In this document: positions 3,495-34,375 of the stretch, piece after piece | Position numbering within the stretch: the first letter of the stretch is position 1 | Layout: every line of letters begins with the position of its first letter | NCBI RefSeq assembly: GCF_964204645.1 | Contig: NC_134035.1 | Location: 10,540,501 to 10,604,500, forward strand | From: Tubulanus polymorphus | Lineage: Eukaryota; Nemertea; Palaeonemertea; Tubulaniformes; Tubulanidae | Direction: 5' to 3' | DNA: 64,000 nt | The notes under the pieces: model-generated | The model's input: only the letters and a program-made list of their open reading frames with translations | Told to the model about the DNA's origin: nothing | The model's database searches: none | Position numbers and translations under genes: made by a program

Positions 3495-4646
3495 TTAATC
3501 CAACCAGCGCACAGTGTAGTTAACATCAACTGAAACTAATTTCTCGAAGTCTCTATCGGGCTTCATATTTGCTATCAATGTTTTTATGTCAAACGGTTTT
3601 TTCACGATTTCTCGCACGGAAAACAATATCTTGTATTCGGGTTTATCGTAAACCGTGTGATGAAATGCGTGACTCGACATCACTTCCGGTCCGTGTGGCT
3701 TATTTGTGTAATTATCGCGTATCAACATTTCACAAATTTTACCTCCAGGTGTTCCAGGGGGTTCCTGATTTTCGCACTCGTATTTGAAGTATTTTACACC
3801 ACTTAGGTCGATGTCAGGTATGAATCGACTGTACGATGCAAAATAGACTGAATCGCATAACGACACGGTTCTGTTGTCCTCGTCGCCCGCGGATTTCTCA
3901 TACGTTACTAAAACCGCATCAGTCATAAATGGACCAGTTTTATAAAGAACATCCGTTCTATTTGTCGCCTCATTCGCTGTCGGTAGAAATTCGATAATTC
4001 TTCGTTGATATTTATGTTTTGGCGTTGACGTCATTAACGCGTTTAAAGTCGATGGTCGCGACAGATTCCAATTAACGATGCTATGAACGAGATGATCTTC
4101 GGGTATCATCGCCGAGTGGGTGTTCAGCAAATGATCGAATGGTCGGAAGGCTTCCATATCTAAATCAGCGTACAGTCCACCAAACGTGTATAGTATGAAA
4201 TACCGAATCGCGTCGGCTCTCTGAATTCCCTCTTCATAATTTTTGTACATCGGATAATACGCAGGAAATCTGCGTTTAACGAACTCGTCGGCGATGCTAT
4301 CGGTCCACAACCAATATTCCCAATCGGGGTGAAGTTTAACCCAAGATGTGATATATTTTTTAAACGAAATCGGGATATTTTCGGTTTTCCACGTTTGGTG
4401 TATTCTTTTAGGTACGCGACCGCATTTACTATCACTTAGGTCCAACTGTTCCAATACATTGGCAACGATATCATTGTATACAACAGGTACCTTCATGTTG
4501 TGTTGTGATATTGAACAGTAACGATGAAATGATGCTTTCAGGCCGCTCAGCGCGTTCTCGCTGAACACCAAAAACAAAATAGCGAGGATAAAGCTGGCCA
4601 ATCCGAAAATCTTGAGATGAGCATGCTTAAGCCGTCCAAGCGCCAT
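3495..4646 (-). CDS. GT32 family (DXD) glycosyltransferase, copy 1
   Basis: This 383-residue protein is a probable type II Golgi glycosyltransferase of the GT32/Gly_transf_sug family (related to Och1-like and alpha-1,4-sugar transferases); the acceptor sugar cannot be told. A short cytoplasmic N-terminus is followed by one membrane anchor (about residues 12-29), a stem, and the catalytic domain beginning at RIHQTWK (81-87). LWTD (113-116), RADAIRY (143-149) and GGLYADLDMEA follow; the DxD (D161, D163) should bind the nucleotide-sugar metal. Several N-glycosylation sequons (NLS, NRT, NYT) fit a luminal domain. The coding region is one exon. Immediately upstream the minus strand reads TTTTTTTTTGTCCTAG|GATG, a strong 3' splice site, so an intron in the 5' UTR probably ends one base before the ATG. 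The paralogue at 8491-9642 has the same length, which supports this start. Confidence 0.9.
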   Translation of the reverse strand: MALGRLKHAHLKIFGLASFILAILFLVFSENALSGLKASFHRYCSISQHNMKVPVVYNDIVANVLEQLDLSDSKCGRVPKRIHQTWKTENIPISFKKYITSWVKLHPDWEYWLWTDSIADEFVKRRFPAYYPMYKNYEEGIQRADAIRYFILYTFGGLYADLDMEAFRPFDHLLNTHSAMIPEDHLVHSIVNWNLSRPSTLNALMTSTPKHKYQRRIIEFLPTANEATNRTDVLYKTGPFMTDAVLVTYEKSAGDEDNRTVSLCDSVYFASYSRFIPDIDLSGVKYFKYECENQEPPGTPGGKICEMLIRDNYTNKPHGPEVMSSHAFHHTVYDKPEYKILFSVREIVKKPFDIKTLIANMKPDRDFEKLVSVDVNYTVRWLD

Positions 4647-8490: not shown

Positions 8491-9642
8491 TTAATCATGC
8501 CAGTGCACACTGAAGTTAACATCAACTGAAACTAATTTCTCGAAGTCTCTATCAGGTTTCATATTTGCTATTAATGTTTTGATGTCGAACGGTTTTTTCA
8601 CGATTTCGCGAACGGAAAACAAAAGCTTGTATTCGGGTTTATCGTAATACGTGTGATGGAATGTGTGATTCGACATCACTTCCGGTCCGTGTGGCTTATT
8701 CTTGAAATTGTCGCGTTTCAGCATTTCACAAATTTTACCTCCAGGTGTTCCAGGGGGTTCCTGGTTTTCACATTCGTATTTGAAGGTTTTTACACCATTT
8801 GGGTCGAAGTCGGGGATAAATCTACGGTATGACGCAAAATAGACTGCATCGCATAGCGACACGATCCTGTTGTCATCATCTCTCACGGATTTCTCATACG
8901 TAACTAAAACCGCATCAGTCATGAATGGACCAGTCTTATAAACAACATCCCTTTTATATGTCGCCTTATTCGCTGTCGGTAGAAATTCGATAATTCTTCG
9001 TTGATATTTATGTTTTGGCGTTGACGTCATTAACGCGTTTAAAGTCGATGGTCGCGACAGATTCCAATTAACGACGCTGTGAACGGGATGATCTTCGGGT
9101 ATCATCGCCGTGTGGGTGTTCAGCAAATGATCGAATGGTCGCAAGGCTTCCATATCTAAATCAGCGTACAGTCCACCAAACGTGTATAGTATGAAATACC
9201 GAATCGCGTCGGCTCTCTGAATTCCATATTCATAATTTTTGTACATCGGATAATACGCAGGAAATCTGCGTTTAACGAACTCGTCGGCGATGCTATCGGT
9301 CCACAACCAATATTCCCATTCGGGGTGAAGTTTCACCCAAGACGTGATATGTCTTCTGAACGAAATCGGGATATTTTCAGTTTTCCACGTCTGGTGTATT
9401 CTTTTAGGCACTTGACCGCAGTTACTATCGCTAACGTCCAACTGTTCCAATACATTGGCAACGATATCATTGTATACAACGGGAACCTTCATGTTGTGTT
9501 GTGATATTGAACAGTAACGACGAAATGATGCTTTCAGGCCGCTCAGCGCGTTCTCGCTTAACACCAAAAACAAAATAGCGAGGATAAAGCTGGCCAATCC
9601 GAAAATCTTGAGTTGAGCATGCTTAAGCTGTCCAAGCACCAT
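8491..9642 (-). CDS. GT32 family (DXD) glycosyltransferase, copy 2
   Basis: This is the paralogue of the 3495-4646 gene, also 383 residues, with the same anchor, RIHQTWK, LWTD, RADAIRY and YADLDMEA motifs. The frame is open further upstream to 9717, but I place the start at the ATG at 9640-9642. It matches the paralogue, and the sequence just before it reads TTTTTTTATCCTAG|GATG, a 3' splice site for a 5' UTR intron. The open frame is intact and the active-site residues are kept, so it is probably functional. It is preceded by a GC-rich stretch at 9783-9840 not found before copy 1. Confidence 0.9.
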   Translation of the reverse strand: MVLGQLKHAQLKIFGLASFILAILFLVLSENALSGLKASFRRYCSISQHNMKVPVVYNDIVANVLEQLDVSDSNCGQVPKRIHQTWKTENIPISFRRHITSWVKLHPEWEYWLWTDSIADEFVKRRFPAYYPMYKNYEYGIQRADAIRYFILYTFGGLYADLDMEALRPFDHLLNTHTAMIPEDHPVHSVVNWNLSRPSTLNALMTSTPKHKYQRRIIEFLPTANKATYKRDVVYKTGPFMTDAVLVTYEKSVRDDDNRIVSLCDAVYFASYRRFIPDFDPNGVKTFKYECENQEPPGTPGGKICEMLKRDNFKNKPHGPEVMSNHTFHHTYYDKPEYKLLFSVREIVKKPFDIKTLIANMKPDRDFEKLVSVDVNFSVHWHD

Positions 9643-9785
9643 CCTAGGATAAAAAAACCCGATTAGTAACACAAATGATTGACTGAAAGGCGTCGAGATC
9701 ATGCAAAACAAGTTCATAAAAGTTCCGGTTTAGGCTACAGCTTTATCTATTCCAGTTCATTGAAATTAGGGAAATCATGTTACGC

Positions 9786-17338: not shown

Positions 17339-18538
17339 TCAAACTAATTTCTCGAACTCTCTATCGGGCTTCATATTTGCTAACAATGTTTTGATGTCGA
17401 ACGGTTTTTTCACGATTTCGCGAACAGTAAACAATAACTTGTATTCGGGTTTATCGTAATACGTGTGATGGAATGCGTGATTTGACATCACTTCCAGTCC
17501 CTGTGGCTTATTCTTGAAATTGTCGCGTTTCAACATTTCGCAAGTTTTACCTCGAGGTGTTGAAGGGGGTCCGGGGTTTTTACATCCGTTTTTCATGCTC
17601 TGTAAAGCATTTGTGTCAAAGTCAGGAATGAATCGACTGTATGGCGCAAAATAGACTGCATCGCATAACGACACGGTTCTGTTGCCCTCAACACCCACAG
17701 ATTTCTCATACGCAACTAAAACCGCATCAGTCATGAATGGACCGGTTTTACGAACAACATCACTTTTGCTTGTTGCTTTATTCGCTCTGGGAAGAAATTC
17801 GATTATTTTCCGTAGATATTTATGTTTTGGCGTTGACGTCATTAACGCGTTTAAAGTCGTCATTCGCGGTCGACCCCAATTAACGACGCTATGGGCCGGA
17901 TGATCTTCGGGTATCATCGCCGTGTGGGTGTTCAGCAAATGATCGAATGGTCGGAAGGCCTCCATATCTAAATCAGCGTACAGTCCACCGAACGTATAGA
18001 GTATAAAATACCGAATCGCGTCGGCTCTGTGAATTCCCTGTCCATAATTTTTGTACATCGGATAATACGCAGGAAATCTGCGTTTAACGAACTCGTCGGC
18101 GATGCTATCGGTCCACAACCAATATTCCCAATCGGGGTGAAGTTTAACCCAAGATGTGATATATTTTTTAAACGAAATCGGGATATTTTCGGTTTTCCAC
18201 GTTTGGTGTATTCTTTTAGGTACGCGACCGCATTTACTATCACTTAGGTCCAACTGTTCCAATGAATTGGCAACGATATCATTGTATACAACAGGTACCT
18301 TCATGTTTTGATGAACGGTACTGTAACGATGCGACGATGATTTCGGTCTGTTCCTCATATCCTGTTTCAATGAATTTGCAACGACATCAGTGAACCCACC
18401 AGGCGCATACTCCTTGTCGGGGTCAGTGAATCTATCAGGTACATTCACGTAATGTGATATTGAAACGTAACGACGCCACAGCAAAAACATCGCGAGGATG
18501 ACACAGGCCATTCCAATTGTTTTGAGACGGGTACGCAT
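17339..18538 (-). CDS. GT32 family (DXD) glycosyltransferase, copy 3 (longer stem, trimmed tail)
   Basis: This 399-residue paralogue has an N-terminal anchor (about residues 7-21), then a stem containing two related modules (VNVP...DVVANSLKQ and MKVPVVYNDIVANSLEQ), then the GT32 catalytic domain with RIHQTWK, RADAIRY and YADLDMEA intact. The stem duplication accounts for the extra length. A TCA-to-TGA change after EKLV removes the last ~11 residues present in the other copies; the lost tail carries no known catalytic motif, so activity may survive. 221 bp of its coding sequence (18,043-18,263) are identical to copy 1, while the C-terminal third is closer to copy 2. The polypyrimidine 3' splice site that precedes the ATG in copies 1 and 2 is absent. 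Confidence 0.85.
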   Translation of the reverse strand: MRTRLKTIGMACVILAMFLLWRRYVSISHYVNVPDRFTDPDKEYAPGGFTDVVANSLKQDMRNRPKSSSHRYSTVHQNMKVPVVYNDIVANSLEQLDLSDSKCGRVPKRIHQTWKTENIPISFKKYITSWVKLHPDWEYWLWTDSIADEFVKRRFPAYYPMYKNYGQGIHRADAIRYFILYTFGGLYADLDMEAFRPFDHLLNTHTAMIPEDHPAHSVVNWGRPRMTTLNALMTSTPKHKYLRKIIEFLPRANKATSKSDVVRKTGPFMTDAVLVAYEKSVGVEGNRTVSLCDAVYFAPYSRFIPDFDTNALQSMKNGCKNPGPPSTPRGKTCEMLKRDNFKNKPQGLEVMSNHAFHHTYYDKPEYKLLFTVREIVKKPFDIKTLLANMKPDREFEKLV

Positions 18539-19474: not shown

Positions 19475-20270
19475 CATTGGGAATATTGGTTGTGGACCGA
19501 TAGCATCGCCGACGAGTTCGTTAAACGCAGATTTCCTGCGTATTATCCGATGTACAAAAATTATAAATATGGAATTCACAGAGCCGACGCGATTCGGTAT
19601 TTTATACTCTATACGTTCGGTGGATTGTACGTTGATTTAGATATTGAAGCCTTCCGACCATTCGATCATTTGCTGAACACCCACACGGCGATGATACCTT
19701 AAGATCATCCCGTTCACAGCATCGTTTATTGGGGTCGACCGCGACCATCGACTTTAAACGCGTCAATGACGTCTACGCCAAAACATAAATATCTACGGAA
19801 AATAATCGAATTTCTTCCCAGAGCGGATAAAGCAACAAGCAAAAGTGATGTTGTTAGTAAAACTGGTCCATTCATATTGATGAGGTTTCAGTTACATATA
19901 TATGTGAAATCCGTGGGTTTTGAGGGCAACATAACCGTATCGTTTTGCGATGCAGTCTATTTCGCGCCATACAGTCGATTCATTCCTGATTTTGACACTT
20001 TTGCTTTATTGAGCTTCAAAAACGGATGTAAAAAACCCCGGACCCCCTTCAACACCTCGAGGTAAAACTTGTGAAATGTTGAAACGCGACAATTTCAAGA
20101 ATAAGCCACAGGGACCGGAAGTGATGTCAAATCACGCATTTCACCACACGTATTACGATAAACCCGAATACAAGTTATTGTTTTCCGTCCGCGAAATCGT
20201 GAAAAAAACCGTTCGACATCAAATCATTTATAGCCAATATGAAGTCCGATGGAGACTTCGAGAAAATAGT
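19475..20270 (+). pseudogene. GT32 glycosyltransferase, copy 4, 5'-truncated and broken
   Basis: Homology begins at the EYWLWTD segment, so the anchor, stem and RIHQTWK part are missing. The DXD segment (YVDLDIEA) is present. A GAA-to-TAA change follows AMIP, and frame changes occur near 19,880, 20,050 and 20,205. Residues such as RADKATSKSDVV place it nearest copy 3, which lies on the opposite strand 0.9 kb away, so the two form an inverted pair. It cannot make an enzyme. Confidence 0.9.
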
Positions 20271-20601: not shown

Positions 20602-21684
20602 TTACAACGCTTTTATCTTACAACTACAGCGACACTTACTTCCAAAATTTTTAAACAATTTTATCGCATCGTGCCTGAATCTATCGTTGGTCAGGCAATA
20701 TACGAAATAATTAACGCTTGAATCTAAAGGAGTCAACACGTCAGACCCTATACCCGATATACGTGAAATAACATTCCTAACTTCTTTACTCGGGCTCGGC
20801 ATACCACATAATTTTACTAGCATATCTAAATAACTTTTAAGCGACGTAGCAAACTCTAAAACTATGAACAATACCACGATAGCGAGCGCCATTCTCGTAG
20901 CTTTTTTATCGAGATTGCTGAACTTCGATTGTTGGGTGCCGAGATTCTCTCTTTGTTTACCAATTTGTTTCAGCAAAATTATGAGAATCACGTTGAGGAT
21001 TATCAGGAATAAAATCGGTAGCAGATTCGTGAAAATCGATGTTAATACCCATTCTACGTAATATAAAAGACGGCCTTCAATTGGATTAAGTATTCTTTTC
21101 TTCAATGCAGGAATATAAAGTCCTGTACACACATCCAACCAATAATATGAATGCCCTACATACATGAAGTAACTAAGACCGAAACAAGCGAAGAAAATGT
21201 ATTGCACGCAGACACATAAAAGTAAGCGTTGTTTGGTGACATGAGCCTGCGCAAACAGCGGGAAACCAAGACTTACTGCCCGTTCAGCTGCTATCAGTAC
21301 CGTTATCCAATTTCTCGTTAATTTTGCCGACCGATTGAAGAGAAACATAACAAAATAGATCATGTAAAATCCCGCATATCTTCCATCGTGATAGATAAAC
21401 TTTAAGAATCTCTGAAGCGCAACGCCATAAACCGTTACATCCAGCAACGGACGCAGGAATTCACGAAAGAATTTGACAATGAGAAATGAAATATCAGCAA
21501 CGGCTAAAGCTCTTAGGAGAAAAATTGACCTGTGCTGCGACGACTGTCGTTTTAGAATCACAATACTGAGTGTGTTAAAGAAAATACCAAACGCTATCAA
21601 TGCGGGCAGAAATGCGACTCGCTGTATGAACTGATCTGTAATCGTTAGTTTTTCATCGCACTTTGGTGGTTTAGTCGTCGACAT
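20602..21684 (-). CDS. Class A G-protein-coupled receptor, peptide type, intronless
   Basis: The 360-residue protein has seven hydrophobic segments (about residues 24-46, 57-80, 104-126, 138-160, 170-190, 222-248, 280-300, and 325-343 as TM7, the first two loops being hard to divide). TM3 ends in AAERAVSL where ERY/DRY is usual, TM7 reads LDSSVNYFVYCLTNDRFR where NPxxY is usual (here N-Y-F-V-Y), and a Cys-rich tail (CRCSC) could be palmitoylated. The TM7/helix-8 pattern is like FMRFamide-receptor-type peptide GPCRs of protostomes. The intracellular loop 3 is short and basic. The ligand cannot be named. One exon, with no stop or shift. Many such receptors occur as lineage-specific, intronless expansions, which fits the degenerate E/DRY and NPxxY motifs. 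Confidence 0.85.
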   Translation of the reverse strand: MSTTKPPKCDEKLTITDQFIQRVAFLPALIAFGIFFNTLSIVILKRQSSQHRSIFLLRALAVADISFLIVKFFREFLRPLLDVTVYGVALQRFLKFIYHDGRYAGFYMIYFVMFLFNRSAKLTRNWITVLIAAERAVSLGFPLFAQAHVTKQRLLLCVCVQYIFFACFGLSYFMYVGHSYYWLDVCTGLYIPALKKRILNPIEGRLLYYVEWVLTSIFTNLLPILFLIILNVILIILLKQIGKQRENLGTQQSKFSNLDKKATRMALAIVVLFIVLEFATSLKSYLDMLVKLCGMPSPSKEVRNVISRISGIGSDVLTPLDSSVNYFVYCLTNDRFRHDAIKLFKNFGSKCRCSCKIKAL

Positions 21685-21903: not shown

Positions 21904-22009
21904 CTATCGCTTAGCAGTTTTATCCCGGTTTTCATGAATACTGGTGCAACCGCCATGACATTCTTGACGTTAGGAGTCGGTTTTAGCGGATTTCCGACAG
22001 CGGGTAAAA
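21904..22009 (+). pseudogene. Isolated copy of an SLC17 exon
   Basis: About 105 bp match, at about 95% identity by eye, the SLC17 exon at 25,123-25,233 of this window, in opposite orientation. The copy keeps the words TTCATGAATACTGG and GGAGTCGGTTTTAGCGGATT and runs past the exon's GT donor into GTAAAA, so it arose from DNA and not from spliced RNA. It remains open (reads [20 protein letters not shown]) with L-to-P, I-to-L and A-to-P changes. No other SLC17 exon lies near it. Confidence 0.85.
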
Positions 22010-23907: not shown

Positions 23908-26900
23908 TTAACTGGTCTTTCCTCCGTTTCGCTTGCGCAGTTTTTCGTCGATCGATTCTTCCAGCGCGTTGTCTGTGCTTTCCATAGTACCGTATGTTTT
24001 CGCATCGTCCGCGGTTCCGTTTGGCCCGAGTCCCTGGGTCTGCATCGGCAACGCTTGGTAGGGTTGTTTGTCCGAATCTGGTTTGACCGGTTTGAGCTGC
24101 ACTCCGGATATTGGATCGGCCCAAGGTTGCCTGTCAGCTGAAAGCACGAACGTAAACATGTGCACAAAACAGAAATTTTAGAAACATCTGCTTGTTAGAA
24201 GAAATCAGATCGAACGATAAAGTGCAGCTATATGAATGCGGGGCGAGTAGTGAGGCTGTCGTCGAGAAATTCAATCGTTTGACATATAAAACCTACCTGT
24301 TCCAAATATTGCGTAAAATACAACTCCAAATGCTAGTACTCCACCAGTTAGAATAAATGACATTTGCCAACTGTGCAGCGACTGAAATTACGAAAACAAA
24401 TCTTTAGGACTCAGTCTAGTATAGTGGAGAAAATTAAATGCTACTGTTGCAATCGATGATTCCACTTATGGCAAGTGAGGATCCGCCAGGCTCGCTAGTA
24501 GTTACTCGGGTCTTCCGCGTTCAATTTCCTCTACATTTAAAATCGAATGAATCGATTATAATGAAATTTATACGAAATATCTGAGTAGTAAATTGAGTTT
24601 GATGTATATTTGGTCGGTTCTTCGATAATGAATGGATTCGGGAGTCTGAAAATCTAGCTGAAAATTGATTGATGGTCGGTTGACTAATGGTGTTGCGTTT
24701 CCCTATTGCTTAACTTTCAAAGTGGTCAACTATGCCTATCAAAAACCCAAGATACGCAGCCATATCAGCGCATCTATCCCCGTTTCGCTTACTTGATCGT
24801 GAGTGATAAAGCCGACAATAAGCGGACTAAGAATTCCTCCGACCGTTCCCATTGTCGTCGACATACCGACCAGGACACTGGCGTACCTCGGTGCGATATC
24901 TAAATGCGAGATCTGCCAACCTAAAAGCAAATACACGGTCACGTTTTTTTAAACCATGAAACTATTCGAATCAGGAAGTTAATTCCTCATAGGCCGGTTT
25001 TATATACTGGTATTACCTTCAACATTGGGGCTAACTCAATTCATTATCAATTGAGTTAACCCCAGAGCTAAAGGTAATACCAGTCTATAAAACCGAGCCG
25101 AGGTCTTTTTGTTTTGTTTTACCCGCTGTCGCAAATCCGCTAAAACCGACTCCTATCGTCAAGAATGTCATGGCGGTTGCGCCAGTATTCATGAAAACCA
25201 GGATAAAACTGCAAAGCGATTCCATCCCGAAACCTTCAATAAGAACGTCGTATTTTTAACAATGTAATTAATCATCACATTAATTTGTTTTTCATTAGAA
25301 CATTTTTGTTTCCTTACCGACACACGTGAAAATCTTTCTGACTTGAGTTTTCGTAAATCTCGGATGCCTGATAGCCCAGTCGGCCAAATGACCGCTTATC
25401 CCGGATAATATAACCATCAGCACATGCGGCAGTGACGAAAGAATGCCATTCTGAAATTTGCAATCATTCATGGAAGGTAACTCGATTATTTGAAAATCAT
25501 TATCAGTTATCAGACGCAATTACACGAATAAATGCGGGAATTTCTGTCGCGTCACTTCGTTTCTTACATATTTCATATACGTGAGTTTATACGCAGGGAT
25601 TTGGGAAACACGTGAACACGGAAACATACATGTTTGATCTCGGAATCCATTTTTTTCCGAATCCATGTTTTTCGCTTCTCATGTTTTTCGCTTCTCGTAA
25701 ACGCACACGACGCATGTTTCCGTCTTCTGTTTCCGTATTTCCCTGTTTCGCGTGCGTTAGGCTTTATATATTCACCTCGGCAATTGTGAAACCGAAACAG
25801 TTGAGATAAGCCGGTTCCATCGTGAGCAAGAGGAAGAACATCCAATTTCGTGAGAAGTGACACACGCATAGTGAAACCACGGCGATCGAACTTAGAATCT
25901 TTTTCCACGGAATCGGTTCATCCTGAAAGTGAAAAATTGTCGGATGAAAATCGAGTGATTATTATTATGAGAGATGGAATGGGATACCGGCAACGCTACT
26001 GAGGGAAGCGAGGATTCAGCGATAATCCACCAGGTTCGCTAGTGGTTACTCGCTTACCGCGGTTCAATTTCTGTCTTCATTTCAATTGAATTCGACGCGA
26101 CCTTTCTCACCAGTAACTCGATTTTCAGGGAAATCTATACCATACACTGAGTGAGAAAGTCAATCTCATATCTATTCGAAGACTTGTTTGATAATTTTCG
26201 GAATTGGAAGCCTAAAAAATATCAACTTCCAATCGAAGAAGAACTGATTTTCACTACGAATAAGCCAGTGTTTCGTTGCTCCATCTGGTGGTGCCGGTAT
26301 CCCATTAATGAATTATTCGAGCTAGTCGCCGAAATTATGATTCAACGACTGCAAATTTCGGTAATTTGAAACGTCATTTTCTTCGGTAGTGGTGCACAAG
26401 TGCGCCCTCGTGTGATAGAAAATTAAGTCAAAATCAGCGCATGACGATAGATGAAGGAAAGCCGGTCGATGTGTGCGTGCACGATGACCAAAGTTAAAAG
26501 TTTATTCTCGAAACCGATGAACATTAAAAAAAAAAGATTCCGCGAAACAAAGACCCTGGAAATTACCCGAATCTAGAATCGATTCGAAAATACCAACTAC
26601 TTCCAAGCACTCCAAAATCAATCTTTAGTTGTTATTTCGAAAAAGAATGATTCCATTAGCTTACCTCTTCCTGGCCATCGGCATTCTAGACATATTATGT
26701 ATATATGATAGATAGATATTCATTTTACCAAATATAGTTTATTATATATACTTATTTGTGCCTAAATCTGATGAGTATAGATTTAACTAAACACCCGGAT
26801 TAACAAATCGGTCAAATATAGATTAAAGGCCGTTTATACGTTTGGACAAGACTTCATCAGATGACACAAGTCAGAACAAAACTAATGCTTAAACCACGTA

Positions 26901-29900
26901 CTCCTTACATACAACATATATTTCAATTTCATACTTTAGATATCATGGATATTTTGCTAAAGTTTCTCTCTTACCTCATAGGTGAACGCCATGTCACCCT
27001 GACTACTTTCGATGTATTTTTTCTCCTCCATGCTGATGTATGGATGATACGCTGGTCTTTCGTAGGCCAGAATCAACCATAAAAGAAACCAGACTATTCC
27101 CATTCCGGCTGCAATGACAACGTCTTTAATGTCAATAACCGAAGGCTTTTTCGTAAATTGAAAGCCTAAGTTCCAAAATTGCGACCTAAGTCAAAATCAC
27201 TTTAAAAAAAATCATTTCAACCGCAATGAAAATGTATTGATTTAACATTGTACGCGGTTGATTCAAATCCAACGCCGCATTATTTCGGCAGCATGAACGG
27301 GTTTTACCCCAGAATTTTTGAAATGGCTTACCGAAGAAATAGAAAACATACTGCCAGCCCATGAAGTGCGTGAGCAGACCGGATACAGGAAAGCCAACTA
27401 TAGCTCCAGCGTAAACACCTGTTTAAATTTTGTACAGAGAAAAATATGAAAAACGAATAAAAACAACACTCCGGTTTGTATTTGTGTAATTGATTTTAGG
27501 CGGCAAAGCAAGTAATAATGTTGAATAAGAGAAAAATCAAATTCACATGTATATCAAATCCGGGCTATATGCACATATTGAATATGGCCTGAATTTTTAC
27601 TAATCAAACGAATACGTTGATGAATATCCCTAATTTCGTTGTGAATTTCAATGGGAGGACAACTGCGTGGTTTAGGAATTGACGGCGGGCGCTACTTACC
27701 AGTAACAGTTGTGGAAGCGATAACACTACCTTCACCATCGACTGACCAGTGTCTCAGTAACGTATACAACGAAGGAAACGCAACACCCTAAATTTATATA
27801 CAGCAAGCATAAAAAAGATTCCAGCACCCTGTTCAACTCGCCCGTGACAGAGGAAGCGAATTTCATGAAATTGATGAAATTTTCTACTGCGATGCAAATA
27901 TGCTACCAGTCGAATAAATTCGCGCGAATCGAATGAGCTAGATTTGCCGAAATATCAATCAGCGATTGCTAATTTTGCCCATACTAAATCATGCGATCTA
28001 ATTTTGATCGGCGAATCAGGCATTCGCACACCGATTTCGCCTAGACGCGTTAACCTTGGTCTCCCGAATTCAATCGCTGGTGAATGTTTCGCCGAATAAA
28101 TTCGCCTGGCACAAGCTTCAAGCCTGTCACAAGCGTCAAGAGTTACATCCACCACACTACATCACCACTTTTGATAATAAACGCATGAAATGATAGAATT
28201 AAGACACAAATATAGGAATACACGACGGATAGCGCGGTGTAGGAGATTAACGTTTTCATAAATTTTTCGGGGAAACTGTAAACGACAAGAAACGTTTTGA
28301 TGATATCTTATTGTTTAGAGTTTCTCCGAATTTTTAATTTTGATAAATTTCGAAATCGTCAGAAAATGAATATAAGAAATCATCAGTTGCAGGTTCGTTG
28401 GTTATGACAGTATGGTGTGGGTTAATCGCTAGTCATCATATTCAGGAAATGGAGAATTTGTACGCGGAATACAGAATGAATACGTCGATTATTCGAAAGA
28501 GGTTTTTAGAATTCATTGATCACAAAACAATATCTGCTCTCAATGATATTTTGGATATTCAAATTATTGGCTACAACGAATAATACGGCATTGAACGGTT
28601 GTATTGGGCTGATTAAGTTTCTAAGGCATCAGTGATTTTTCTATTAAAAATGGCGCCAATACAATCCGTATATACGCTCGCTGACTATACACGCATATAG
28701 TTGATTTAATGTTGATTATCGGAGAATTGAAATCTGACGGCATATGTCGCCGATTTCTTTATTTAGTCCCGTTCAAATATCGCCGTATGATGGCTTGGAT
28801 ATAGGCCCTACTTGTTTAAAGAACGGTTGAATTTAGTGGTATGCTAACATTCGAAGTGTTGTAATGTAGCGAATATATCGGGAATCGAAAATTGTAAAAA
28901 CGAATCCGACAGATTCGTTACAACGCAGCTGATTAGCGTTGAATCGATAAGATCGGCTTCAGATTTATTCAACAAATATACAATTAACAAGTATAAATGA
29001 CGGACAATGTATAAATAAACGAAGTATGAATGACTTAATCCCGAACCTAAAGAAGCTTATTTTGGTAATATCTGAAGATGGTTAAGTTGACGAAACGCTC
29101 TGTTCGTGTCTCCACACTCGAACAGAAAAATTAGTCCGAAAAGGTTTCCTCAAGTTAATCATTCATTTTTCGACGGGAATTTGTTCAGGAATACTGAATA
29201 TCGATGATTAATTTATGAGTATAGAACGTCATCTATCGCAATCAGTTCGAAATTGTTGAATATTAAAAAGAAAAAATGAAATGAACGGATCGCTGTAAAG
29301 ATAACTTGGTGATAAAGTGACAGCTTGAGTTGTTATGGCGTATGTTAAGTAACCGGGTGATATTACTGCATATACCAAACTTGTTTGTGTAGCTGTGACC
29401 GAATCAGTATTCGGTAAAGGGTTGAAACCAAATCCGTCGTTTGTCGAAAACCTTTCAATATTGTGATATGGGATACTTTGCATTGAGCGTACGATTGAAA
29501 AGGTGGTCATATGTTATCTAAATGTTTCACTTTAAATGTATTTTGATTGAAAACCAGCCACCGCCATTTTCTTATATTCTAATGAAATATCCGATGCAAA
29601 CGAAGGATCCAATAGATTTTTGCTTGATGTAGAAATTTCCAATTGTTGATACTTCGTTTGCATATTATGAACCCTCTATGGACGAAAACCACAACACACA
29701 AACACCAACGATTTTACCTGTTAGAACCAAGGCCGCCTGTCGGCTCTGTTCGGGGGGAATCACCCAATGACGTAATATCGTGTAGCACGCGGGGAATACC
29801 AGGCCCTGTTTAAAATCGTATTGTATTACAAGCACTTAAATCAGTTTGAAAGATTGAACCGAGGGAGGCAGTTAATTAAGTAATTTCCATTGCAGATAAA

Positions 29901-32900
29901 AATATCAATACACGATTTTCCCAATACACTTTTTCCTCGACGCTCAATTAAAACTGTGAACAAAGCATATCGTATTGGAGCTCTTTTATATACAACGTCT
30001 AATCAATAATAGTAACACCTGTTTGGGCGATTACGATCGAAATGTTTTCCCTGATTTCCGTTGATCGATCAAATCACGATATTTGACGGTACACGTGATT
30101 AAACAGCTCAACGGGTTCTAGTATTCGCAGTTATGAAAACGGTTCATAGACGCGTATATTGAATGTTCGAATTCCGATAATTTCGTGAATAATCGACTAA
30201 TTTCATAAATAAAACGTTCTTCATTCATCACGATTTCTAAAGGATATCCAACTGATCTATTCTTTACAAAGGGAATTGTTTTCCTACAGATGTGTCGAGG
30301 TTTTGTTCCATTTTCTCGCATTCTTTGAATTTTCATAAATCTTTAGATTTTTTATACGACCGGGAACGGCTTGCACCGACACTGGGCTTTGAAAGGAGGT
30401 AACTACAAGGCAATGTTCATTAGTAACCTTTTATCTTTGTAAAACCGTGTAGATATTGCGCAGGGTTCCCATTATCTGGTCTAACTGACATTTCTATATA
30501 GATTTTTTGAATTTGAAACGTGCATTTGTTTAACATTTGTTTAATTACTGGTACTTCACCAATTTCGAGGACTCTAAGGCAGCTTTCGTTTGAATCGATA
30601 TTCCGGAATATCGATTCTGGATTAGCTCCCTACCGGCCGCTCTATCAATTTTACATGCTATTTCGTAATTGGCAGAGTGTCGAACTTGCCAGATGAGGAA
30701 TCGGTAGAGACCCGTCGAAACCTGCCTATAAAGTGCCCCTAATGTTTACCTCCGATAGGCCTTGTACGAGTCGTATCGCGCACGTAGCCTCGTAGCCTAA
30801 CTTGTCGATTCCAACCGGAAGCAGTAGATTTAGCACGCAAGACGTTAGTATACTTCCACCAAATAACCTGTAAGCAAAGCAGAAATTAGAAACGATTTTC
30901 TAAGTTAAGATATTTCAGTCTATACTTGATCCATCAAACATTATTCGAAGCAAATCATTGATGATGCACTAAGTCCGCTGTTGAAAAGATGAAATAAAAT
31001 CCCAACAAGAATTGAAAGGATGCGAAAAGCGACACTGAAACATCTTAGAGTCAGGAATGTCATCTTAGAACTAGAAATGTTTCTTTGAGCTAGTAGTTGG
31101 TTTAACGTTTCAGCCATATCCTACGATAGTCATTTTCAGGAATACCGATTTTTACATATCTGGTGTGGGATTTTATATCATTATGTAATGCAACCTATCT
31201 AGGAATGCTGATTTTTTTCTGGTGTAGGTTTTTTTTAATGACTGCACGTACCTATGTCCCGGTAACTTCGTGGCCAGAAAACCGCCCGGTATTTGAGTAA
31301 CTAAAAAACCGACGTAGAATATACTGTGCAGAAAACCGACCATTTTCGATGTCCATCTCGCAGTTGGTAGCTACAAAGTGAAACACATCGGAAACCACTT
31401 CAGACAACATTAGAACAAACATTATTAGTAAAACCAATAACTATAGCATATTTATTTTTTTTTCCAGCTGGAAAGGTGCGAATTGGGGATCGATATCCAA
31501 TATAGTTAACCCGGAGTATAGTATAGAAACTGGGCCGTATTAAAATCGATTTCGTGATTTTGAAATAGGCCGGGCATACAGGCAAGATAAAAAGGTTTTC
31601 ACACAACATCTAAATGACGAAAGTTCGCGCCGACAATATTACGCAGATTCGTAATAAATGCGTACTAATAATTAGTTAATACGGAGGAATTTGATAGAGA
31701 ATGATTTGTAGTAATTCAGCAGGTAAATAAAATGTCATCTGTTTAAACACGATAAAAATCGACCCGTTCAAAATCATATATACCACCGATACATTTTATT
31801 TGATAGGAATTCGTTACAATAAATATGTGCTCCGACTTAAAGTTGGTCCCCGACACCGTCACGGGTATGATATAAGTTTTCGTCGGAATTGTGCGTCGGT
31901 TTTAACTATGCACAAAAAGTGTAAACATAAAACCTTTCCTAAGGTTTCATCGTTCAATCATTAAAAGGTTAACGGCATTTCGGGGTAACTGATCTAACAC
32001 TTCCATCTCTTTCTAAACAACAAGGACATAGATTTGAGAGAAGAGACGCAAATGAAAGTTTGATCGTCACGCAAATACTCAATTTCTTAAAGGATTACTT
32101 AAAGCACAGGGACCAGTTTTATAGACTGGTAGGCCTATTAACTTTAACCCGGGGGTTAAATGGATTAAGTTAGCCCCGAGTTCAATTCAAATTCCAGTCT
32201 ATATAACCAGCGTCTGATGTTTACGTCACTAATTGTATGATTCAAAATCGATAAAGACCAATCGAAATATAACCGTCAGAGAAATGTTCGTAAGAAATGC
32301 AATTGCTGAAGAAAAGTTACACATATTATACATTGATATAAATTCGGATTAATAGGCTCGGATTATGATGACTAATCAGCACACGACTTCTGTAAAATAG
32401 TATATCCTTTCTATAGTGCAACCCGTATAAATATAAGGCACATGTTGTGCAGCTGTGAGCGGTATTATTGAGAGCTATATGTATAGAAATATTTGATTAG
32501 CGGAATATCTATACGTCGAACAGACCTCGATTTTGTGCTGTTTGATGTCTTCTTCCACGAACGCTTGTACCGGATTTACCAACTATAGACAAACGATAGA
32601 GTAGTAAAGTAGCGAAACCTCTATTTCATACCGTCCGAACAATAATGGATCGATATCGAAAAAAGTAATACTGAAATTCCATCGCAATTATTCAGGCATA
32701 TTATATGGACAGTTTATTCGATATGCATATTCTATTATGACAGTTCGAATTTTATTTCGGATTTTAATTCTCAAAATTGTATCAAATATACACGGAATAT
32801 AATAAACGGATGTTTCCCCAGCACCAGTTCATGTATACGTAATATCTGATTATTTGCTGTATATAGATAGATATATGTTAAAATAATTTCCGATATTTTT

Positions 32901-34375
32901 TTGCCGATGAAAACAGTCATCGAGTAGAGTGTGAAAGCGTCGGAAAATGTGAAATACACAGCATCAAAAGATAACTTCATTAAAAAAACGAAATACGCCA
33001 GTAGTTGGCGAAGAAGATATACAGGCAATATACACGAATTTGAAAAACTTTCACCTAAACAGTCATTTTTGAAATAAAACTACTCGGTATTATGCGCATT
33101 TGACTTAATATGATGAATGTATAGTTAGCAATTTTGTACATTTTAAGTTACGTCTATATCAGAAATTCGCAACGAAATATGATTTCGATTTCATCAACAG
33201 AATATCAGTTTCGTCTCGAAGTACAGCAACTGCGTTTGAAATTGAGAAATCTGCTTTTTTCAACAAAATTTTGCAACCATTCACTTTATCCATACATACT
33301 TAAAACATTAGGCAAAATAGAATTTAATCCCTACAACGCGCCGAAGAGGCATTTCATGTACGGAAATCAACGCCATAGAATCATTTAATTTTAATTTGGA
33401 TAGGTTGCAACGGAGTCTCATGATGAAGTGTCATAGTTGTAAACATTGAAAGGCACAAATCGACTAAAATATCTTGGAATATTTTCATTGAAATAAAGTA
33501 AAATAAAGAGTAATACATATTTGAATATATTGATGATTGAATAGTGTCCACTTTAGCCCACTACCTTACTGTCTGACGCATGCTCATTACCTGCATTTCG
33601 GACAGCTCTTCAAGGCGCTCGAGGGGGCTGGGTGGTGTGGGTGGGTAAGTTGGCGCGGGCGAGGACCCGTTGTTCTATAATCATTCAGTGAAAAAGGTGA
33701 TTTTTAGATACTACAAATAATTACCTTCGCGATCGTAAAATATTTTCAAAAATGTCAATATCAAAATTTGAACTGAATAACGAAGCTAATGCGATTCAGG
33801 CGAGGTCGAGGTCACAGCGCGTCATATTGGACTGAAGCAAAATGTAACATCTGAAAAACTGATGCATGTGAACTATACGCGTGGTATTCGACGAGTGATA
33901 TCTTCAGAGGATCCAGTTCCGAAGTTGTGCAAAGTCGATATATGGGTAAAACGGCAATGGACGAAATTTGACAGTTTGAATCAGGTCAGTTAAGAAGGCG
34001 ATGAGAACGAACATTTCGAAAACAACTGAGATTGAATTCGTGCAAAAATCAAAAGCTCATGAATATATTACTAACCGTTTGGTGGACGGACGGGTGAGTC
34101 TTCATTCGTGGTTCAGCGTCTATGATTGTCAAAATGGCCACGGCGACATTGACCCTCATCGAGTGAATGACGAACATGCCCAGAAAACACATCGCCACCA
34201 TCACGTAACGTTTCGGCACGTAGAAACAACACGAACAACTGAATACCGTATCTTGAATACGACGGGTCTTTCCTAACAGCGTCTCCTTGTCCGACATCAA
34301 TTCAGTCGTCGAATTCTCGAACGCTCCGTCGCCGTTCTCGGAGTCGCGCTTCGGCGCAAGTCCACTAGCCGTCAT
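23908..34375 (-). CDS. SLC17 family transporter (sialin/VGLUT-like), complete, with alternative TM4 exons
   Basis: Coding exons, all with GT-AG borders and matching phases: 34375-34076, 32582-32526, 31370-31252, 30867-30750, 29805-29718 or 27787-27700, 27418-27332, 27108-26975, 26685-26665, 25922-25776, 25450-25318, 25233-25123, 24920-24793, 24381-24297, 24137-23908. With one of the two alternatives this gives exactly 585 codons plus stop. The family (MFS, about 12 membrane helices) moves organic anions such as sialate or glutamate out of lysosomes or into vesicles. Visible family marks are VPKRY and SMRVNVAVA in TM1, TQIPGGFLA in TM2, RLVQGLSEG in TM4 (R and E seven apart, as the essential pair in VGLUTs), [13 protein letters not shown] and [13 protein letters not shown]. 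An acidic, dileucine-like DKETLLG sits in the N-terminal tail, as in lysosomal sialin. The substrate is not predictable. A 5' UTR exon (about 34788-34741) and acceptor at 34409 are likely. Confidence 0.92.
24443..24560 (+). repeat. Dispersed repeat C, copy 1 (SLC17 intron)
   Basis: The segment shares GAGGATCCGCCAGG, GGTTACTCG/AGTTACTCGG and TCTTCCGCG words with 25,985-26,110, 57,600-57,720 (minus) and, in part, 59,850-59,905. It is non-coding and looks like a short interspersed repeat. Confidence 0.6.
24992..25099. mobile_element. MITE in SLC17 intron (GGCCGGTTTTATA family)
   Basis: Ends GGCCGGTTTTATATACTGGT and ACCAGTCTATAAAACCGAGCC are inverted repeats, and the centre (GGGGTTAACTCAAT / ATTGAGTTAACCCC-like) is also palindromic, so the 108 bp fold into one hairpin. 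It lies in the intron between exons 25,123 and 24,920. A relative is at 32,110-32,213. Confidence 0.75.
25985..26110 (+). repeat. Dispersed repeat C, copy 2 (SLC17 intron)
   Basis: A relative of 24,443-24,560 in the same orientation, sharing AATCCACCAGGTTCGCTAGT and GGTTACTCG words. Both copies lie in introns of the transporter gene. Confidence 0.55.
26665..26685 (-). CDS. SLC17 21-nt microexon
   Basis: The minus strand reads GTCTAG|AATGCC...GAAGAG|GTAAGC, encoding NADGQEE between phase-0 neighbours. It falls in the central cytoplasmic loop between the two six-helix halves. Skipping it keeps frame (578 residues), so it may be a cassette. The acceptor has a weak polypyrimidine tract. Confidence 0.6.
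27700..27787 (-). CDS. SLC17 alternative exon 5b
   Basis: This exon is also 88 nt, phase 0 to phase 1, preceded by a weak TATAAATTTAG and followed by a strong GTAAGT. It encodes [16 protein letters not shown] followed by DGEGS and ends in VTG, with 14 of 30 residues identical to 5a. The PPEQSR core is replaced by DGEGSV. Using both exons or neither would break the frame, so they should be mutually exclusive. Confidence 0.88.
29718..29805 (-). CDS. SLC17 alternative exon 5a
   Basis: The 88-nt exon is preceded by TTTTAAACAG and followed by GTAAAA; it starts in phase 0 and ends in phase 1. It encodes [14 protein letters not shown] followed by VIPPEQSRQ and ends in LTG, corresponding to the GVTFPA...PPLERS stretch between TM4 and TM5 in sialin and VGLUTs. 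It keeps the PPxxS-R core of that motif. It lies 1.9 kb upstream of its homologue 5b. Confidence 0.9.
32110..32213. mobile_element. MITE in SLC17 intron, second family member
   Basis: Left end GGACCAGTTTTATAGACTGG and right end CCAGTCTATATAACCAGCG are imperfect inverted repeats, with a GGGGTTAA-type centre as in the element at 24,992. It is more diverged and so probably older. It lies in the intron between the 32,526 and 31,370 exons. Confidence 0.65.

What the first reader, a model, noticed from the sequence alone, without database searches (positions are those of the whole stretch)
27700..29805. Mutually exclusive TM4 exons in an SLC17 transporter
Two exons 1.9 kb apart, both exactly 88 nt, both phase 0 to 1, encode homologous 30-residue segments (14 identical) right after the R...E pair of TM4. 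Including both or neither shifts the frame, so only one can be used per mRNA. The conserved PPxxS-R core is kept in 5a and replaced by DGEGSV in 5b, in a region that in human sialin and VGLUTs is sensitive to mutation. The gene may make two transporters with different substrate or coupling. I do not know of this arrangement in SLC17 genes.
Basis: partly seen in the sequence, partly recalled or inferred. Interest (0 to 1): 0.8.

Follow-up and report, generated by a model that had tools for sequence, protein, structure and literature searches.

The report
Swappable exon pair in vesicular transporter
A gene for a glutamate-type vesicular transporter in an unnamed animal carries two alternative versions of one small exon, only one of which can fit in a working message, so the gene can probably make two transporters that differ at the inner gate; this way of making variants is known, but I found no report of it in this transporter family.

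Summary
On the minus strand an intact SLC17-type gene (34375-23908) has two homologous 88-nt exons, 5a (29805-29718) and 5b (27787-27700), both phase 0 to 1, with GT-AG borders. Either gives an open 606-residue protein; both or neither gives an early stop. Exon 5b is no chance match: among 85 open AG-88-GT frames in the window only 5b resembles 5a (score 71, next -9). The pair diverged under protein-level selection: silent sites are saturated, replacement sites are not. In 29 other SLC17 places examined the matching exon was seen once each, with an 88-nt reading. The protein is closest to VGLUT2/3. Best reading: tandem exon duplication with mutually exclusive use, swapping the inner half of TM4 and the TM4-5 loop. 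No transcript data could be seen, so use of 5b, exclusive splicing and any functional difference are inferred. The mechanism is known; I found no report of it in SLC17.

The parts
34076..34375 (-). coding exon 1 (N-terminus, TM1)
   Evidence: gene model; aligns to VGLUT2 TM1
33591..33674 (-). coding exon 2, 84 nt, phase 0/0, luminal loop; prediction only, perhaps optional
   Evidence: not covered by the PDB alignment; not found in the VGLUT-like paralog
32526..32582 (-). coding exon 3, 57 nt, phase 0/0, luminal loop; prediction only, perhaps optional
   Evidence: as above
31252..31370 (-). coding exon 4 (TM2)
30750..30867 (-). coding exon 5 (TM3 and first half of TM4, ends RLVQGLSE)
29718..29805 (-). 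alternative exon 5a, 88 nt, second half of TM4, TM4-5 loop, start of TM5
27788..29717 (-). 1,930-nt intron between 5a and 5b
27700..27787 (-). alternative exon 5b, 88 nt, homologous to 5a
27332..27418 (-). next common exon (TM5 into TM6)
26975..27108 (-). common exon (TM6 and start of central loop)
25776..25922 (-). common exon (TM7 region)
25318..25450 (-). common exon
25123..25233 (-). common exon
24793..24920 (-). common exon
24297..24381 (-). common exon
23908..24137 (-). last coding exon with stop codon

Best explanation
The exon of an SLC17 (VGLUT-branch) gene that codes for the cytosolic half of TM4 and the TM4-TM5 loop was duplicated in tandem long ago, and both copies are kept as mutually exclusive alternatives. 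Shown: two homologous 88-nt exons with canonical borders and equal phase, either of which completes a 606-residue transporter, while both or neither gives a premature stop. Shown: the two copies diverged to silent-site saturation while keeping protein similarity. Inferred: each mRNA that makes protein carries exactly one, mis-spliced forms being frameshifted and presumably removed by nonsense-mediated decay, with cell-type splicing factors choosing. Inferred: the two transporters share the binding residues and differ in the inner (cytosolic) gate, where 5b removes the last basic residue of the TM4-5 loop and brings in D and G, so they more likely differ in turnover, pH or voltage control or trafficking than in substrate.
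For: Reading frames of all four combinations. Chance excluded. NG86 pS 0.90 against pN 0.43; identity by codon position 13, 19, 7 of 29; of 20,000 simulated neutral copies of 5a with 48 changes, 4,504 stayed open, 0 of these reached the observed BLOSUM 71 (best 43) and 1 reached 13 identities. No other exon has a convincing second copy within the gene. The matching exon was seen once, with an 88-nt reading, in 29 of 29 other SLC17 places examined. 5b keeps the positions fixed in 19 paralogs that 5a also keeps: G1, W14, E19, G30 (G1 is 28 of 29 in the larger set). Both isoforms score best to VGLUT2 (381 and 361 bits, the second with a shorter query). [quoted passage not shown]
Against: No transcript of any kind was seen. 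Only one animal genome is held, so conservation of the pair in relatives is untested. 5b departs from positions that are fixed or nearly so in the 29 paralogs (16: P in 26; 20 and 23: 29; 22: basic in 28) and scores 12 bits less than 5a against Pfam MFS_1 (137.4 against 149.2), so its product might be inactive. A crude search for long-range RNA pairing that could enforce exclusion found nothing clearly beyond shuffles. On the 30-residue tree 5a and 5b join with only 0.313 support, so that they are sister copies is not firmly shown. Even in human clusters of the frame-shifting type, reads joining both exons were found in 83 of 377, so exclusion need not be strict.
Confidence: 0.8

Rival explanations
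1. 5b is a regulatory (poison) exon or makes an inactive transporter: its inclusion lowers the amount of working protein and its peptide sequence matters little now.
For: 5b loses the prolines and both basic positions of the loop that nearly all paralogs keep; joining 5a to 5b gives a stop after 273 residues.
Against: A poison exon needs no conserved peptide; 5b keeps frame, exact length, phase and the positions fixed in 19 paralogs apart from 20 and 23, at saturated silent sites.
Confidence: 0.12
2. 5b is a relict exon on the way to loss; only 5a is used.
For: 5a is closer to the family norm.
Against: Open frame, GT-AG borders with the donor gtaagt, and no sign of decay although nucleotide identity to 5a is only 40 of 88. 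A very recent loss of use cannot be excluded from one genome.
Confidence: 0.06
3. 5b is what is left of a partial tandem duplication of a larger part of the gene, or an assembly error.
For: Local duplication happens here: a 104-nt inverted copy of another exon lies beyond the gene's end. A weak match to exon 24920-24793 lies in the intron between 5a and 5b (29089-29033, E 0.067, with a stop codon), most likely chance.
Against: No other exon has a convincing second copy inside the gene; the copies differ at 48 of 88 nt, so they are not one haplotype assembled twice.
Confidence: 0.02

Closest known systems
Tandem-duplicated mutually exclusive exons of human genes (PMC5740500, PMC9741552), such as SLC25A3 and CACNA1C
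   Same: Homologous neighbouring exons for the same piece of a membrane protein; one per protein; in many clusters lengths not divisible by three so that joint use shifts the frame; a swap inside a folded domain.
   Different: Other families. SLC17 does not occur in the main text of PMC5740500; the term SLC occurs once in PMC9741552, in a passage on SLC12A1. The copies here share 45% of residues.
VGLUT2/VGLUT3 (SLC17A6/8) and the VGLUT-like paralog at C11:4023.5-4031.6 kb of the same genome
   Same: Same family by score; in the paralog an exon at the same place with the same phase and an 88-nt reading; R of TM1, H of TM2, R and E of TM4 and R of TM7 are identical between the focal protein and VGLUT2 in the alignment (that they matter in VGLUT2, and the TM numbers, are recalled).
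   Different: The paralog has one exon at this place; the focal gene has two, both without the basic residue at position 20 and L23.
E. coli DgoT and human sialin as structural models of SLC17 (PMC6532931, PMC11116495, passages)
   Same: Counting without gaps, exon position n equals DgoT 133+n and sialin 175+n: position 4 = F137, a substrate-contacting gate; position 8 = N141/H183, a cytosolic gate (H183R eliminates transport); position 19 = E152, which pairs with the arginine corresponding to sialin R39 (the paper itself equates N141 with H183, the other places are my count).
   Different: Both alternative exons have F, Y and E at these three places; they differ around them.

Membership tests
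Mutually exclusive tandem-duplicated exons | Homologous adjacent exons of equal phase within one gene | tested here: met
Mutually exclusive tandem-duplicated exons | Joint inclusion or joint skipping gives no working protein | tested here: met
   stops after 273 and 232 residues
Mutually exclusive tandem-duplicated exons | Transcripts with each exon and few with both or neither | not testable with these tools
   no RNA data held
Mutually exclusive tandem-duplicated exons | Pair conserved in related species | not testable with these tools
   only the window's own animal genome is held
Mutually exclusive tandem-duplicated exons | A structural cause of exclusion (steric, U2/U12, RNA pairing) | tested here: inconclusive
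   The 1,930-nt spacing rules out steric block; all borders GT-AG without the U12 donor consensus (recalled); pairing scan against 6 shuffles per pair of introns shows nothing clear
SLC17, VGLUT branch | Closer to VGLUTs than to other solved SLC17 proteins | tested here: met
   VGLUT2 377-381, VGLUT3 368, sialin 282-285, DgoT 52-54 bits; SLC17 members without a solved chain could not be compared
SLC17, VGLUT branch | TM1 R, TM2 H, TM4 R...E, TM7 R | tested here: met
   identical in the alignment to VGLUT2; their role is recalled
SLC17, VGLUT branch | Glutamate uptake into vesicles | not testable with these tools
   needs an assay
NCBIfam TIGR00894 (Na-dependent phosphate cotransporter type) | Curated cut-off 626.45 bits | tested here: not met
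   358.7 bits (5a) and 345.0 bits (5b); so not filed as an NPT-type phosphate carrier

The most novel reading that the evidence does not exclude
A VGLUT-branch transporter whose cytosolic gate is an exchangeable cassette: by choosing 5a or 5b a cell sets how the carrier returns and how it responds to pH, chloride or voltage, or whether it works as a vesicular or a plasma-membrane carrier, with the substrate site unchanged. As far as my searches reach it would be the first splice-switched gate in this family and a natural experiment on the TM4-5 loop.
Probability: 0.25. Interest if true: 0.7.

Novelty: new member of a known kind. Interest (0 to 1): 0.48.

Why it matters
SLC17 carriers load glutamate into synaptic vesicles and export sialic acid from lysosomes, and how the same fold is driven by voltage in one case and by protons in the other is still being worked out. 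A gene that swaps just the piece after the proton-sensing TM4 glutamate, with everything else fixed, would let that piece be tested in two natural forms. It would also add a neurotransmitter-type transporter to the proteins tuned by exon swapping.

Tried and rejected
Steric exclusion between the exons: rejected, the intron between is 1,930 nt. Different spliceosome classes: rejected from the donors (U12 consensus recalled). RNA docking pairs between the introns before, between and after the pair: best duplexes -53.7, -47.6 and -47.8 kcal/mol against ranges -50.4 to -59.2, -37.0 to -49.9 and -39.0 to -50.9 in 6 crude two-base-block shuffles each: nothing clear, though the second is lower than 5 of its 6 shuffles. 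Splice-site scoring from 12 donors and 12 acceptors of this gene was too noisy to use: donors 9.3 (5a) and 7.6 (5b), acceptors -3.1 (5a) and 5.5 (5b), with the gene's other acceptors ranging from -13.5 to 9.5. Partial gene duplication: no other exon convincingly repeated within the gene. Recruitment of 5b from another paralog: not settled; 5b scores 72 to the C3:2035 kb gene over 30 residues, and 71 to 5a over 29 residues (77 if the shared last glycine is added); tree support 0.313. Species identity: no COX1 match; two Pfam markers chosen from memory for molluscs and annelids gave no match here nor in any control genome, so they say nothing.

Literature: (open-licence PMC library; I saw titles and abstract starts of the listings; one search listed 20 of 22) showed no SLC17 or VGLUT mutually exclusive exon pair by title or abstract start. 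One search was for the structure of sialin. Opened by passages only: PMC9741552, PMC6532931, PMC11116495, PMC7954323, PMC7318467 (its sialin case is an alternative 3' splice site in exon 8), PMC8626913, PMC12528612 (Slc17a8 in inner hair cells is described as the full-length isoform), PMC8395830 (SLC17A3 listed as exon skip and alternate promoter); PMC5740500 by passages and the whole of section 7. The other listed papers and all supplementary tables were not opened, so a case there cannot be excluded.

Full report
What is there. The minus strand carries a complete gene model from ATG at 34375 to TAA at 23908. With exon 5a (29805-29718) or exon 5b (27787-27700) it gives an open protein of 606 residues; with neither the frame stops after 232 residues, with both after 273. 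All introns of the model, those around 5b included, are GT-AG. Both exons are 88 nt, phase 0 to 1, 13 of 29 residues alike (14 of 30 with the split codon) and 40 of 88 nt alike.

Is it more than chance. In the window, on both strands, 85 stretches of 88 nt lie between AG and GT and are open in this phase. Scored against 5a with BLOSUM62, 5b reaches 71; the other 83 (5a itself left out) average -30 (SD 10) with a maximum of -9. tblastn with 5a alone finds 5b at E 4.6e-6 in the window. No other exon of the gene has a convincing second copy inside the gene; the strongest weak match is to exon 24920-24793 at 29089-29033, E 0.067, with a stop codon.

Have both copies been under selection. Identity by codon position is 13, 19 and 7 of 29 (first plus second against third position, Fisher p 0.007). 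Nei-Gojobori pS is 0.90 and pN 0.43. Neutral copies of 5a with the same 48 changes kept an open frame in 4,504 of 20,000 cases; 0 of these reached BLOSUM 71 (maximum 43) and 1 reached 13 identities. A copy that drifted freely would not look like 5b. Recent loss of use cannot be excluded from one genome.

Which family. Nearest solved proteins to the 5a form: VGLUT2 377-381 bits, VGLUT3 368, sialin 282-285, DgoT 52-54. The 5b form, given from exon 4 on, ranks the proteins in the same order (VGLUT2 358-362, VGLUT3 350, sialin 266-268, DgoT 55-56). Pfam MFS_1 matches both, 149.2 and 137.4 bits. NCBIfam's best model, TIGR00894, stays under its cut-off for both (358.7 and 345.0 against 626.45), so the phosphate-carrier subfamily name does not apply. 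I call it a VGLUT-branch SLC17 protein; what it carries is unknown.

Paralogs as a yardstick. Searches of the genome located 29 other places with the matching exon: 19 in loci (read out), and 10 more, fetched. In 29 of 29 the exon has an 88-nt reading in the same phase and was seen once in the stretch examined; in 8 of the 29 a further in-frame donor is also possible next to it (6, 2). For the VGLUT-like paralog on the same contig the whole interval between neighbouring exons was examined: one exon. For the other 18 loci the stretch is at least 1.0 kb on each side and the full interval was not established in every case; the ten later ones were cut to span the neighbouring exon matches. A search hit count alone would not do: one search does not even list 5a or 5b, so a second copy as divergent as 5b would be missed by it, which is why the DNA was scanned. 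One weak match (C1:17040924, E 6.7) was not followed. The searches give lower bounds, so more SLC17 genes may exist. Because the family exon is 88 nt, a tandem copy of it is bound to be frame-incompatible.

What differs. Over the 29 paralog exons W14, E19 and L23 are fixed, position 20 is basic (27 R, 2 K), position 22 nearly always (28 R or K, 1 T), position 16 is P in 26 and 17 P in 19. 5a reads V15 I16 P17 P18 E19 Q20 S21 R22 Q23; 5b reads S15 V16 D17 G18 E19 G20 S21 V22 I23. Thus both lost the basic residue at 20 and L23, which suggests that the loop was released before the duplication; 5a keeps P17 and R22, 5b neither.

Where it sits in the protein. The exon before ends in R...E (RLVQGLSE), which by spacing is DgoT R126 and E133 and sialin R168 and E175. 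Counting on without gaps, position 4 is DgoT F137 (contacts substrate), position 8 is N141 = sialin H183 (cytosolic gate; H183R eliminates transport), position 19 is E152, which pairs with R29, the residue corresponding to sialin R39 of Salla disease (PMC6532931, passages; PMC11116495, passages). 5a and 5b have the same residue at all three (F, Y, E). The swap therefore leaves these binding and proton-sensing residues and changes what surrounds the inner gate and the loop near TM1 and the intracellular helix. My inference is altered gating, coupling or trafficking rather than a new substrate.

How exclusion could work. A steric block needs short spacing (under 50 bp in PMC5740500); here 1,930 nt. 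U2/U12 mixing is not seen. A crude pairing scan showed nothing clear. What remains is regulated choice by splicing factors, with frameshift and decay as a safeguard. In human genes 377 of 629 clusters (60%) contain lengths not divisible by three, of which 83 still showed reads joining the exons; 57 (9%) have potential steric block and 5 U2/U12 incompatibility (PMC5740500 section 7).

Known or new. Exon-swap pairs are well known and reported as enriched in ion channels (PMC9741552, passages). I found none in SLC17 in the searches named under Tried and rejected, in an open-licence library only and without supplements. I rate it a new member of a known kind, worth following because the swapped piece adjoins the proton-sensing glutamate. 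The main gap is RNA evidence.

Noticed in passing
window 21906-22009 (+): An inverted copy of 104 nt (25220-25117) that covers most of the focal gene's exon 25233-25123 and its donor, 99 of 104 identical, cut off at its 5' end, 1.9 kb beyond the gene's stop codon: a recent local inverted duplication.
   Followed up: partly
window 26685-26665 (-): Possible 21-nt microexon (NADGQEE, phase 0/0, bordered by tctag and gtaagc) in the central cytosolic loop between exons 27108-26975 and 25922-25776; seen by eye, place checked, may be chance.
   Followed up: no
window 33674-33591 and 32582-32526 (-): Two predicted exons of 84 and 57 nt, both phase 0/0, that add 47 residues to the luminal loop; no counterpart found in the VGLUT-like paralog. 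They could be cassette exons.
   Followed up: partly
window 3495-4646, 8491-9717, 17339-18538 (-), and about 19500-20100: Three intact related reading frames that look like DXD glycosyltransferases (label recalled, not searched), and by eye a degenerate inverted stretch with similar wording.
   Followed up: no
window 20602-21684 (-): Single-exon 360-residue reading frame that looks like a peptide-type GPCR (label from reading, not searched).
   Followed up: no
L046 4602-4715 (C11:4024827-4024940): The VGLUT-like paralog reads IFIKIIQGLVE, with K where VGLUT2 and the focal gene have the TM4 arginine.
   Followed up: no
genome G000, contigs C1, C2, C3, C7, C8: Large SLC17 expansion: 30 places with this exon counting the focal gene once, many in clusters (C2:24.77-24.80 Mb, C8:11.18-11.20 Mb, C7:1.66-1.67 Mb, C3:2.03-2.05 Mb); whether all are intact genes was not tested.
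   Followed up: partly
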